Source: Competibacteraceae bacterium UBA2788 | GTDB lineage: Bacteria > Pseudomonadota > Gammaproteobacteria > Competibacterales > Competibacteraceae | DNA length: 26,170 nt | NCBI GenBank assembly: GCA_002352185.1 | Contig: DEHY01000057.1 | Coordinates: forward strand, 5,723-31,892 | Direction: 5' to 3' | Shown here: positions 8,098-15,441 of the stretch, in pieces | How the letters are laid out: every line of letters begins with the position of its first letter | How positions within the stretch are numbered: the first letter of the stretch is position 1 | Translations under genes and position numbers: made by a program | Notes under the pieces: model-generated | What the model was told of the DNA's origin: nothing | Database searches by the model: none | The model's input: only the letters and a program-made list of their open reading frames with translations

Positions 8098-8673
8098 ATG
8101 GCAATCAGTCTGCAAAAAGGCGGCAATGTCAATCTGAGCAAGGAAGCGCCTGGCTTGGCCAGGATTAAGGTCGGATTAGGCTGGGACGCCCGCGCTACCG
8201 ATGGCGCGGCTTTCGATCTGGACGCCAGCGCGTTTCTGGTCAAGAGCGATGGCAAGGTGCGGGACGATGGCGATTTTGTGTTTTATAACAATGCCAAAGG
8301 CGCCAGTGGCGCGGTCGAGCATTGCGGCGACAATATCACCGGCGTCGGCGAGGGCGACGATGAAGTCATTCAGGTGAGTCTGGCGCTGGTGCCGGAGGAA
8401 ATTGCCAAGATTGTGGTTGCGGTGACGATTCACGAGGCCGAAGCGCGGCGCCAGAACTTCGGTCAGGTCAGTCAGGCGTTCATCCGCATTGTTAATGAGG
8501 ACAATGGGCAGGAGATCGCCCGCTATGATTTGAGCGAGGATGCGTCTACGGAAACCGCCATGATCTTCGGCGAGGTCTACCGCAATGGAGCCGACTGGAA
8601 GTTCAAGGCGGTTGGGCAAGGCTTTGCCGGTGGGCTGGGGCCGCTGGCGCGAGCGCATGGCGTGAACGTTTGA
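8098..8673 (+). CDS. terD: TerD-family tellurium/stress resistance protein
   Basis: This 191-aa cytoplasmic protein belongs to the TerD/TerE/CABP1 family of calcium-binding beta-sandwich proteins linked to tellurite, phage and colicin resistance. It begins with the usual ISLQKGGNVNLSKEAPGL and has the acidic metal-site segments FDLDASAFLV, DFVFYNN and GDNITGVGEGDDEV, plus the C-terminal NGADWKFKAVGQG found across the family. Length is normal. The start at 8098 has AAAGGGG a short distance upstream. It is the only TerD-type gene in the window; terA, terB, terC and terZ are not seen. It is followed by a hairpin (8681-8705) and then by the AIM24-like gene, so it may be the sensor or effector that goes with the downstream biosynthetic genes. 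Confidence 0.95.
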   Translation: MAISLQKGGNVNLSKEAPGLARIKVGLGWDARATDGAAFDLDASAFLVKSDGKVRDDGDFVFYNNAKGASGAVEHCGDNITGVGEGDDEVIQVSLALVPEEIAKIVVAVTIHEAEARRQNFGQVSQAFIRIVNEDNGQEIARYDLSEDASTETAMIFGEVYRNGADWKFKAVGQGFAGGLGPLARAHGVNV

Positions 8674-8680
8674 GGCTGCG

Positions 8681-8705
8681 GGCGGGGAGCTTCGCGCTTC
8701 CCGCC
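8681..8705 (+). terminator. Hairpin between terD and the AIM24-like gene
   Basis: A 10-bp stem (8681-8690 with 8696-8705, one G-T wobble) with loop TTCGC begins 8 bases after the terD stop and is followed by ATGATTTTC. The short T-run makes it a plausible partial terminator or attenuator, letting terD be made in excess of the downstream enzymes. It could also only protect the 3' end of a processed terD message. Confidence 0.5.
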
Positions 8706-8759
8706 ATGATTTTCAACAAGCTGCGAAATCCGGCGCGTTCATTGGATTGAGAAACGATC

Positions 8760-12669: not shown

Positions 12670-13391
12670 TTTTTCTTGACCTCGACGACACCATTCTGCA
12701 AACCGCGCCCAAGTGTCCACCCGGCGAGGAGGTCATCCCCGCAGCGGTGGATCGCACTGGCCGGGCGCTGTCGTTCATGACCCGCGCCCAGCAGCGCTTG
12801 CTGGCATTCTGGCTGGAGCAGGGTACGGTGATTCCGGTGACGGGCCGCACGGATGATGCGCTGGCGCGGGTGAATATCGCGTTCGCCTCCTGGCGCATCA
12901 CCCATCACGGCGCAGTGATTCGCCAGCCCGATGGATCACTGCCGACCTGGTGGTATACCCAGGTGCGCCCGTTGCTGGTGGCGGCGCAACCGCTGTTGTG
13001 GAGTCTCGCCGCCCGCTTGACGACGGACGCAGCAGCAGGAGGCTATCGGGTGAGCAGCCATTCGGTTGATGAATGGCTGACTTACGTCTCGGTCAAATCC
13101 AATGATGATGGAGTGGCGCTGGTGCGGGTGCGGGCGCACTTGCAAAAGGTCGGACTGCCGCCGGAATTGGCGCTGCATTGCAACGGCAACAATCTGGCGA
13201 TCACGGTCAAGGGCGCGCAAAAGCAGGATGCCGTGCGCCGGGTAGTGGCGGAACTGGAGCGGGAGGGGCCGGTTGTCACGATTGGGGCCGGTGACAGCCT
13301 CACCGATATCCCCTTTCTGCGAACCTGTGATTTCGCCCTGGTGCCCAAGGACAGTCAGATTCAGACGGAAACCTGGCGCGAGTCCCGTTGA
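12654..13391 (+). CDS. HAD-superfamily phosphatase (Cof/sucrose-phosphatase-like)
   Basis: This 245-aa cytoplasmic enzyme is a HAD hydrolase with a C2-type cap. Motif I is FLDLDDT with the nucleophile at D9 and the general acid at D11. Motif II is the Thr in IPVTGRTDD, motif III the Lys in VKGAQKQDAV, and motif IV GAGDSLTDIPFL. The cap lies between motifs II and III, as in the Cof-like group. It probably dephosphorylates a sugar-phosphate or nucleotide-like intermediate made by the neighbouring phosphoribosyltransferases; this is inferred from the operon. Its ATG lies inside the end of the PRTase-TRSP gene with GGAGG upstream, and its stop overlaps the next start as TGATG. Confidence 0.9.
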   Translation: MPRIVIFLDLDDTILQTAPKCPPGEEVIPAAVDRTGRALSFMTRAQQRLLAFWLEQGTVIPVTGRTDDALARVNIAFASWRITHHGAVIRQPDGSLPTWWYTQVRPLLVAAQPLLWSLAARLTTDAAAGGYRVSSHSVDEWLTYVSVKSNDDGVALVRVRAHLQKVGLPPELALHCNGNNLAITVKGAQKQDAVRRVVAELEREGPVVTIGAGDSLTDIPFLRTCDFALVPKDSQIQTETWRESR

Positions 13392-14473
13392 TGATCCCGT
13401 TTTCCGGCAGCTACCGCCCCGAAGACACCGTCTTTCTGCTCAAGCCGATGGCGCTGGACGGGGTGGATGTGGCGACCAAGGAACGCCTGATCCAGTCCGG
13501 CCAGCGCCATTACAGCGAACTGCTGACACCGGAGCAGGCGCCTGATCCGCGTTATCTGGCGCTGTTCGAGGCGTTGACAGCCCGTTACGCCCGGCGATTG
13601 GCGGCAGAGATCATGGCGCTGGCGTGTCATCTGATGGAAACCCGACCCTGGCAAATTACCGTAGTGTCGCTGGCCCGCGCCGGCACTCCGATTGGCGCGT
13701 TGCTGACCCGTGCTTTGCAGCAACGGGGGCGGTCGGATGCCTGCCATTACTCGATTTCAATTATCCGCGACCGGGGGATTGATGAAAATGCGCTGGCGTT
13801 CATCCTGCGGCGGGAAGAGCGGGACCCGGCTGGGCTGGTCTTCGTGGACGGTTGGACCGCCAAGGGAGTCATTACCGAGGAGTTGCGGCGGGCGCTGCGG
13901 CATTGGAACGCCCGCCGGCCTGAGCAACTGGCCGAGATGCTGTATGTGGTGTCCGATATTGGCGGCGTCGCCGATGTGGCCGCAACCTATGATGATTACG
14001 CTATTCCCAGCGGCATTCTCAACGCCACCGTTTCCGGCTTGACCAGCCGTTCGATTCTTAATGCCGAAATTGGCGCAGAGGATTTTCATGGTTGCTTTTA
14101 CTATAAGGAATTCGGCGCACATGACCGTTCCAACTGGTTTCTCGATCAGGTGGCCCTGCATTTTGCCAGCGCTATCCCGCAATTGGTGAATTTCAATTCC
14201 GAGCAGCGGCTGGAACGGCGTCAACGGATGGCGCAGTTTCTGACGCGCATCCATGCCTGTTACCGGATTGCCGACCGCAATTTTGTCAAGCCGGGCGTGG
14301 CTGAGGCAACCCGGGTTTTATTGCGCCGTTTGCCTGATTTATTACTGCTGCGCGATCCGGATCATCCTGATGTTGAGCATCTTCGGCTGCTGGCTGGGGA
14401 AAAGCAGGTGCCTATCGTTATCGATTCAACCATGCCTATTCATGCTACCGCCCTGATCAAGGATTTATCATGA
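13391..14473 (+). CDS. PRTase_1 family protein (often labelled 'cysteine protease StiP')
   Basis: This 360-aa protein belongs to the family that databases label StiP cysteine protease but that fold analysis reassigned to phosphoribosyltransferases. It has ITVVSLARAGTPIGALLTRA in a Rossmann-like strand-helix, then SIIRDRGIDENAL, then GLVFVDGWTAKGVITEELRR at about 150-170. The last aligns with the PRPP loop of phosphoribosyltransferases, with the usual acidic pair altered to D-G. A conserved GCFYYKEFGAHDRSNWFLD segment follows. I see no protease triad argument. It is the second PRTase of the module. The ATG at 13391 overlaps the HAD stop; a TTG one codon upstream in the same frame is the alternative. 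The 3' end overlaps the aldolase gene as ATGA. Confidence 0.88.
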   Translation: MIPFSGSYRPEDTVFLLKPMALDGVDVATKERLIQSGQRHYSELLTPEQAPDPRYLALFEALTARYARRLAAEIMALACHLMETRPWQITVVSLARAGTPIGALLTRALQQRGRSDACHYSISIIRDRGIDENALAFILRREERDPAGLVFVDGWTAKGVITEELRRALRHWNARRPEQLAEMLYVVSDIGGVADVAATYDDYAIPSGILNATVSGLTSRSILNAEIGAEDFHGCFYYKEFGAHDRSNWFLDQVALHFASAIPQLVNFNSEQRLERRQRMAQFLTRIHACYRIADRNFVKPGVAEATRVLLRRLPDLLLLRDPDHPDVEHLRLLAGEKQVPIVIDSTMPIHATALIKDLS

Positions 14474-15441
14474 GCGTTATTCCTGTTGATTTCCGCACGT
14501 TGCAACATAGTGATCTGGATGATCCTTATGCCGAATGGTATGAGCCAAAACCGGCGCTGTCGGCCATAAATTTGGGAGCATCGCTGTATGTGCCCGCCAC
14601 TCGGCTGGATTTGGAGATCATCGCCAGCGGACAGAAGCTTCCCGAATTAAGGTCGGTGATTTTTTGCACCGAGGATGCAATCCACGAGCGGGATTTGGAA
14701 GTGGCGCTGAGCCGTTTGGCGGTGCTGCTGCCGGAGTTGCAGCCGGTACCGTTATTGCGCTTTATCCGCCCGCGTAATCCGGCAATATTGCGGCGCTTGT
14801 TGCGGATGGAAGGGATTGAGCGGATTCACGGCTTTGCGCTGCCCAAATTTGACCCACACACGCTGGGCGACTGGCTACGAGTCTGGGATGACCGACATGG
14901 GCATTATCTGTTGCCGATCCTGGAAACCGCTGAGGTGTTTGATCGCCGCAAAATGGAGTTGCTGCGTGACCGGCTGGAGAACAGCGGACTGGGTGAGCAG
15001 GTGCTTGGCTTGCGCATTGGCGGTAATGATCTACTGAGCTTGCTGGGCATCCGCCGGGCGCGCGGCGCGACGATTTATGACACGCCGCTGCGTGGCGTCA
15101 TTGCCGATCTGGTGTGTATTTTCCATCCGGCGGGGTATCGCTTGAGCGCACCGGTATTCGAGCGGTTGGACACGCCGGAGGTGTTGGCGCGTGAGGTGGA
15201 GGCTGATTTGCAGCATGGCTTGATCGGCAAGACCGCGATTCATCCGGCGCAAATTCCGGTGATTGAAGGGCTGTACCGGGTTTGCCGCGACGATTACGAG
15301 ATGGCCTCGGCGGTGCTGGCGCCGGACGCGGCGGCGGTCTTCAAACGGTGTGAGACGTTTTGTGAGCCGACGACGCATCGGCGCTGGGCGGCGGGAGTGC
15401 TGGAGCGGGCGCAGGTATTTGGAGTGCAGGGTGCGGCATGA
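14470..15441 (+). CDS. CitE-like HpcH/HpaI-family aldolase/lyase
   Basis: This 323-aa TIM-barrel protein resembles citrate lyase beta subunit and HpcH/HpaI aldolases, which make or break C-C bonds with a Mg2+-bound keto acid. Visible family elements are SLYVPATRLDLEI, an acidic VIFCTEDAIHERDLEVAL, the phosphate-binding Arg in LLRFIRPRNPA, GFALPKFD, the metal ligand Glu in LPILETAEVF, RIGGNDLLSLLG, and GKTAIHPAQIPVIEGLYR. Its real substrate is unknown; the family role in the ter-linked module is predicted to be chain extension or cleavage of the sugar-like part. It is the last gene of the operon and ends 7 bases from the convergent small cysteine-rich gene, with no terminator between them. Confidence 0.9.
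   Translation: MSVIPVDFRTLQHSDLDDPYAEWYEPKPALSAINLGASLYVPATRLDLEIIASGQKLPELRSVIFCTEDAIHERDLEVALSRLAVLLPELQPVPLLRFIRPRNPAILRRLLRMEGIERIHGFALPKFDPHTLGDWLRVWDDRHGHYLLPILETAEVFDRRKMELLRDRLENSGLGEQVLGLRIGGNDLLSLLGIRRARGATIYDTPLRGVIADLVCIFHPAGYRLSAPVFERLDTPEVLAREVEADLQHGLIGKTAIHPAQIPVIEGLYRVCRDDYEMASAVLAPDAAAVFKRCETFCEPTTHRRWAAGVLERAQVFGVQGAA

What the first reader, a model, noticed from the sequence alone, without database searches (positions are those of the whole stretch)
8098..15441. Complete ter-linked biosynthetic operon with AIM24 protein and a glycosyltransferase
Seen: eight same-strand genes in order TerD, AIM24/TIGR00266, ATP-grasp, CgeB-like glycosyltransferase, PRTase-TRSP, HAD phosphatase, PRTase_1 ('StiP'), CitE-like aldolase. 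From the ATP-grasp gene on, junctions are TGATG, 10 bases, a 16-base overlap, TGATG and ATGA. Known: ATP-grasp, two PRTases/TRSP, HAD and a CitE-like lyase form the ter-associated module that comparative genomics predicts to make a nucleoside-like compound; its product has not been identified to my knowledge. Inference: TerD and AIM24 act as the sensing or protective side, and the enzymes make a glycosylated nucleoside-like stress metabolite. Only one TerD and no TerC or TerB is present, so it is a stripped-down version.
Basis: partly seen in the sequence, partly recalled or inferred. Interest (0 to 1): 0.8.

Follow-up and report, generated by a model that had tools for sequence, protein, structure and literature searches.

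The report
Ter stress operon plus added glycosyltransferase
This is a known type of bacterial stress-linked enzyme cluster whose product is not known, here in a relative of wastewater Competibacter bacteria, with an extra sugar-transferring enzyme that, among the genomes examined, was seen beside it only in this bacterial family.

The parts
8098..8673 (+). TerD domain protein (sensing or protective side; role inferred)
   Evidence: PF02342, 280 bits; best match outside the family among the fetched loci is the first TerD of Janthinobacterium clusters, 71% identity; own-genome paralogues on C149 65%
8681..8705 (+). GC-rich hairpin just after the TerD stop codon, terminator-like or RNA-stabilising
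   Evidence: 10 pairs, -21.1 kcal/mol, 0 of 200 shuffles as low, 0 of 200 by stem score, 3 of 100 in a third test; weak T-tail here; in Janthinobacterium a T-run in 10 of 10 and a hairpin at most 2 of 100 shuffles reach in 8 of 10
8760..9470 (+). AIM24 / TIGR00266 protein
   Evidence: PF01987 184 bits; TIGR00266 122 bits, over cut-off
9484..10530 (+). ATP-grasp enzyme of the Ter pathway (TTG start)
   Evidence: PF15632 ATPgrasp_Ter 125 bits; 10 of 39 family genomes have it over 100 bits; decayed in G026
10530..11510 (+). GT-B fold glycosyltransferase, PF13524 (CgeB-like), the lineage-specific addition
11521..12669 (+). PRTase_2 phosphoribosyltransferase with C-terminal TRSP domain; PRPP motif VDDEISTG
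   Evidence: PF15609 198 bits, PF12500 61 bits; D156 and D157 invariant in 30 aligned sequences
12654..13391 (+). HAD-IIB type phosphatase
   Evidence: HAD-IIB models below cut-off; 6cj0/6d3v E 9e-31; D9, D11, K190, D214, D218 invariant in 28 sequences
13391..14473 (+). StiP (PRTase_1): PRTase-fold domain with altered PRPP loop VDGWTAKG, plus C-terminal PELOTA/L7Ae-like domain
   Evidence: PF11202 318 bits, PF15608 93 bits; model pLDDT 93.6; fold matches; weak L7Ae profile match of the tail, E 0.004
14470..15441 (+). C-C bond lyase of TIM-barrel fold (CitE-like)
   Evidence: PF15617 302 bits; E68, R100, E152, D187 invariant in 23 sequences

Best explanation
It is the chromosomal Ter-linked biosynthetic module of a Competibacteraceae bacterium (same genus by kinship as genomes whose records are titled Candidatus Contendobacter), between aapJQMP and FAD-oxidase/serA-like genes, with a lineage-specific glycosyltransferase inserted. 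Shown: gene content, order, start-stop overlaps, conserved residues in place, and the linkage pattern across genomes. Inferred: PRTase_2-TRSP moves ribose-5-phosphate from PRPP onto an unknown acceptor; the HAD enzyme removes the phosphate; StiP, a second PRTase-fold protein with a changed PRPP loop and an RNA-binding-like tail, carries out or controls a second ribosyl step; the C-C lyase and ATP-grasp ligase build or extend the acceptor; the glycosyltransferase adds a sugar in this family. TerD, here and at the separate ter locus, and AIM24 bind or respond to the product at the membrane. TerD is probably made in excess over the enzymes, because a hairpin follows it and the later genes would depend on read-through.
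For: Domain calls. Of 55 non-family module loci PRTase_2-TRSP, HAD, StiP and lyase are in 52, 53, 55 (by selection) and 40. In the family 26 of 26 PRTase_2 genomes have StiP and a TerD domain. In G004, G005 and G007 the cluster is cut in two and both halves are kept: GT-PRTase_2-HAD by aapJ, StiP-lyase elsewhere. GT lies upstream of PRTase_2-TRSP on the same strand in 18 of 18 genomes with both: within 40 bases in 16, with only ATP-grasp between in 2. Motif residues invariant. Ter genes elsewhere in the own genome and in G006, G012, G027. Hairpin after TerD at most 2 of 100 shuffles reach in 14 of 19 TerD/AIM24 junctions, against 2 of 38 coding controls at the same 2% level.
Against: No product, substrate or expression is known. 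GT occurs without the module PRTase_2 in 4 of 22 GT genomes (G001, G002, G019, G021), two of them rated about 100% complete. The Ter-type ATP-grasp over 100 bits is missing in 16 of 26 PRTase_2 genomes, all drafts. GT/PRTase_2 co-occurrence is weak by count (p 0.04, phylogeny ignored). The window's own hairpin has a poor T-tail and missed the threshold (3 of 100); by the stricter stem test 11 of 19 junctions had at most 2 of 200 shuffles as good, with gaps cut at 110 bases there. Terminator-like sites in the region as a whole are no more than chance (8 found, mean 8.8 in shuffles), and no sigma-70 site was found before TerD. The 19 junctions include 10 from one genus.
Confidence: 0.5

Rival explanations
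1. The glycosyltransferase is a bystander: a surface-polysaccharide type enzyme that settled beside aapJ and is read with the module by position only.
For: 4 of 22 GT genomes lack the module PRTase_2; in G019 the GT stands beside aapJ with no module gene recognised. The only relative outside the family in 369 class genomes, G307 (38% identity), has no PRTase_2 and lies beside what looks by eye like a methyltransferase gene.
Against: 18 of 18 genomes with both keep GT upstream and co-directional, including three where the cluster was split and GT stayed with PRTase_2-HAD; start-stop overlap with ATP-grasp in the window.
Confidence: 0.35
2. The module makes an O-ribosylated product by the CriT/CrpP chemistry of a capsule polymerase (PRPP to an alcohol, then dephosphorylation) and not a base-containing nucleoside.
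Against: Foldseek E-values are weak and put HPRTs first (best 1.9e-3, 8a0c at rank 22); the Z margin is small; PRTase_2 has the ordinary DD motif; no acceptor is known; the StiP profile finds no Bcs3 sequence up to E 1.
Confidence: 0.15
3. The genes are housekeeping or salvage steps and TerD/AIM24 are incidental neighbours.
For: In the family TerD and AIM24 are mostly unlinked from the enzymes.
Against: No PRTase_2 genome of the family lacks a TerD domain (26 of 26); TerD is in 46 of 55 non-family loci; 12 of 39 family genomes lack StiP, some of them incomplete drafts.
Confidence: 0.1

Closest known systems
Ter-linked nucleoside-like biosynthetic module (Anantharaman, Iyer and Aravind 2012; paper not held; known here from passages in PMC8115787, PMC7824862, PMC5822837 and from Pfam names)
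   Same: PRTases, HAD phosphatase, Ter-type ATP-grasp, C-C lyase, TRSP and PELOTA domains, TerD, AIM24 as a neighbour of TerD
   Different: Adds a PF13524 glycosyltransferase; TerB/TerC lie on another contig. Whether the 2012 paper mentions glycosyltransferases could not be checked
Janthinobacterium ter clusters (L115, L120, L121, L124, L125, L129, L140, L143, L147, L150)
   Same: Same order TerD-AIM24-ATPgrasp-PRTase_2/TRSP-HAD-StiP-lyase
   Different: No GT; a further TerD after the lyase; T-run after the first TerD
Acinetobacter phage vB_AbaM_ME3 ter genes
   Same: PRTase-HAD-PRTase order near a 'chemical-damaging agent resistance protein C' and a vWA gene (described in PMC7824862, passage)
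   Different: No AIM24, ATP-grasp, GT or lyase is annotated in the 17-kb stretch read
Klebsiella plasmid ter locus (PMC8115787, passages)
   Same: A putative biosynthetic gene set beside a ter operon, product unknown
   Different: Plasmid-borne and on the opposite strand to a terZABCDEF operon; gene sets not compared here
CriT/CrpP of the Hib capsule polymerase Bcs3 (PMC10299916, passages)
   Same: PRTase-like enzyme plus HAD phosphatase using PRPP; structural resemblance of StiP
   Different: Domains of one polypeptide with a polymer acceptor; no sequence match found

Membership tests
Ter-linked biosynthetic module | PRTase_2-TRSP gene | tested here: met
   PF15609 and PF12500 over cut-off
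Ter-linked biosynthetic module | StiP/PRTase_1 with PELOTA_1 | tested here: met
   PF11202 and PF15608 over cut-off
Ter-linked biosynthetic module | C-C bond lyase and HAD phosphatase in the same run | tested here: met
   PF15617 over cut-off; HAD
Ter-linked biosynthetic module | Ter-type ATP-grasp | tested here: met
   PF15632 125 bits
Ter-linked biosynthetic module | TerD in the neighbourhood | tested here: met
   in the family seen at this place only here and in G006
Ter-linked biosynthetic module | makes a nucleoside-like metabolite | not testable with these tools
   needs biochemistry
GT4-like retaining glycosyltransferases | GT-B fold | tested here: met
GT4-like retaining glycosyltransferases | EX7E motif (recalled, from no call) | tested here: not met
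   E247 is invariant in 49 aligned sequences but residue 239 of the window protein is H; so filed only as PF13524 with a GT-B fold
CriT-like glycan phosphoribosyltransferase (for StiP) | PRTase-like catalytic domain | tested here: met
CriT-like glycan phosphoribosyltransferase (for StiP) | acidic pair supplied by two different loops | tested here: inconclusive
   D153 invariant, next residue G154 invariant; a partner acid was not identified
CriT-like glycan phosphoribosyltransferase (for StiP) | ribosyl phosphate transfer to an alcohol | not testable with these tools
   needs an assay
cysteine protease (Pfam's wording for StiP) | protease fold | tested here: inconclusive
   the rows listed are mainly phosphoribosyltransferases and none is named a cysteine protease; a family not listed is not excluded

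The most novel reading that the evidence does not exclude
The Ter module is a PRPP-dependent O-ribosylation system (CriT/CrpP-like chemistry) rather than a base-nucleoside pathway; StiP's L7Ae/PELOTA-like tail would steer the transfer to RNA or to an RNA-bound partner, and the Competibacteraceae glycosyltransferase extends the ribosyl mark with a second sugar.
Probability: 0.06. Interest if true: 0.8.

Novelty: new variant of a known kind. Interest (0 to 1): 0.36.

Why it matters
In the passages seen the Ter biosynthetic product is only predicted (PMC8115787, PMC7824862). Competibacteraceae offer natural variants of the decorating steps: over a fixed core, ATP-grasp and GT presence need at least 6 and 5 changes on a rough StiP tree. 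Comparing metabolites among such variants could show which atoms each enzyme adds. The hairpin after TerD suggests a stoichiometry (much binding protein, little enzyme) that can be measured.

Tried and rejected
Mutual exclusion of GT and ATP-grasp: of 26 PRTase_2 genomes 13 have GT only, 5 ATP-grasp only, 5 both, 3 neither, but the tree gives only 2 independent pairs on supported branches and no significance, so no claim is made. Two of the three 'neither' (G035, G038) are drafts rated 75% and 58% complete whose contigs end near the PRTase_2 gene. ATP-grasp matches under 100 bits (for example G031 53, G029 44, G010 66 bits, and many carbamoyl-phosphate-synthase-sized frames) were not counted. 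G036 was left out of the tree because its StiP is split over two contigs.

GT as a general part of ter clusters: not supported; 0 of 55 non-family loci, 45 of them with at least 6 kb held upstream of StiP; 4 of 369 class genomes, 3 of them of the family; on plasmids 109 records match but none over 80% of the query and all under 60% identity. The 41-51% relatives among the 120 proteins listed of 373 have no context and were not followed.

AIM24: five genomes of genus g12 with only 36-44% matches were left out of the 18; all five have PRTase_2.

Defence system: no PADLOC match for the eight genes except a weak NACHT-model hit to the ATP-grasp (E 0.0006, no stretch passing on its own).

Literature: the source paper of the module is not held. 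No held paper has both Competibacter and tellurium resistance; the 10 papers were seen as a listing only. Neither is proof of absence in print. No held paper names 6cj0, 6d3v or 6d3w. Passages of PMC11127046, PMC13239750, PMC8199023 and PMC10318531 were seen; the last three gave nothing of use.

Solved relatives by sequence: none for the lyase (E 0.01) or PRTase_2-TRSP (E 0.1); the PRTase_2 profile gives only weak PRTase matches (best E 0.034).
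Full report
What is there. The window is part of contig C88 of a 3.2-Mb, 234-contig genome. Names on some close GT relatives and on contigs of its relatives (same lengths as G-handle contigs) place it in Competibacteraceae, in the same genus by kinship as genomes titled Candidatus Contendobacter. 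The flanks are aapJQMP-like transport genes on one side and an FAD-linked oxidase and a serA-like gene on the other.

A known module. The 25 of Competibacteraceae repeat contigs seen under G handles. Of the other 55, PRTase_2-TRSP is in 52, HAD in 53, lyase in 40, TerD in 46, TerB in 33, ATP-grasp in 23, AIM24 in 20 (two of them weak matches under 40 bits), TerC in 3 (by a profile from few sequences) and GT in 0. Some contigs are short, so presences are lower bounds; among the 45 with 6 kb or more upstream of StiP, GT is again in 0. Ten of 12 Janthinobacterium loci show TerD-AIM24-ATPgrasp-PRTase_2/TRSP-HAD-StiP-lyase-TerD; the other two are short contigs. Seven of 16 loci that I grouped as purple sulfur bacteria and kin have TerD-AIM24-TerD before PRTase_2 and further Ter genes inside the cluster. 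That AIM24 is a frequent neighbour of TerD was already in print, as quoted in PMC5822837 (passage).

The family pattern. In 39 family genomes, many of them drafts, StiP is in 27, PRTase_2-TRSP in 26 (a 34% match in G001 not counted), GT in 22, close AIM24 in 18 (five weaker ones not counted), Ter-type ATP-grasp over 100 bits in 10 (16 genomes are over Pfam's cut-off), TerD at E 1e-20 in 32 (fused forms included). All 26 PRTase_2 genomes have StiP and TerD. Among the 26 other genomes whose StiP loci were read the complete eight-gene order appears only in G006. In three g9 genomes AIM24 lies on the opposite strand between StiP and the lyase (L052, L057, L061); in 13 of 18 genomes it is away from the module. 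G003 has a TerD-TerD-AIM24 group on another contig (L218).

Ter genes elsewhere. C149 of the same genome carries TerB (84 bits), TerC (137 bits) and two TerD genes in a row. G006, G012 and G027 show TerD-TerD-TerB-TerC-TerD-TerD; G009 and G028 show the like without a TerC match by our profile. The module is therefore unlinked from the membrane part, not deprived of it.

TerD junction. After TerD the window has a 10-pair hairpin (0 of 200 shuffles as low; 3 of 100). Over 19 TerD/AIM24 junctions, 14 have a hairpin that at most 2 of 100 shuffles reach, against 2 of 38 coding controls of the same length at the same level; by a stem test with gaps cut at 110 bases it is 11 of 19 at 2 of 200. A run of six T lies in all 10 Janthinobacterium gaps and in none of the other 9. 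The Janthinobacterium loci are close relatives, so these are not 19 independent cases. Reading: TerD ends with a terminator or a stabilising hairpin and the later genes depend on read-through; in the window the T-tail is poor.

Verdict. Real, intact, and mostly already described as a kind. A glycosylated product is reasonable at about even odds.

Noticed in passing
L049 (G026:C6), about 5980-6716: A decayed ATP-grasp gene with stops lies just upstream of an intact GT; it looks like a recent loss of the ATP-grasp step.
   Followed up: partly
L055/L206 (G004), L050/L207 (G005), L048/L208 (G007): The module is split into GT-PRTase_2/TRSP-HAD beside aapJ and StiP-lyase elsewhere.
   Followed up: partly
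L069:1219-4452 and L070:9558-10787 (own genome): TerD domains fused to a PF10139 (Virul_Fac) protein and to a trypsin-like peptidase domain.
   Followed up: no
L052, L057, L061: AIM24 on the opposite strand between StiP and the lyase in three genomes of one genus.
   Followed up: no
   Followed up: no
window 2600-3583 (-): An N6/N4 DNA methyltransferase (156 bits; type II methyltransferase models); no restriction enzyme among the window proteins scanned.
   Followed up: no
window 12654-13391: The HAD enzyme's nearest solved relatives are deposited as trehalose phosphatase (6cj0, 6d3v); no held paper names them.
   Followed up: partly
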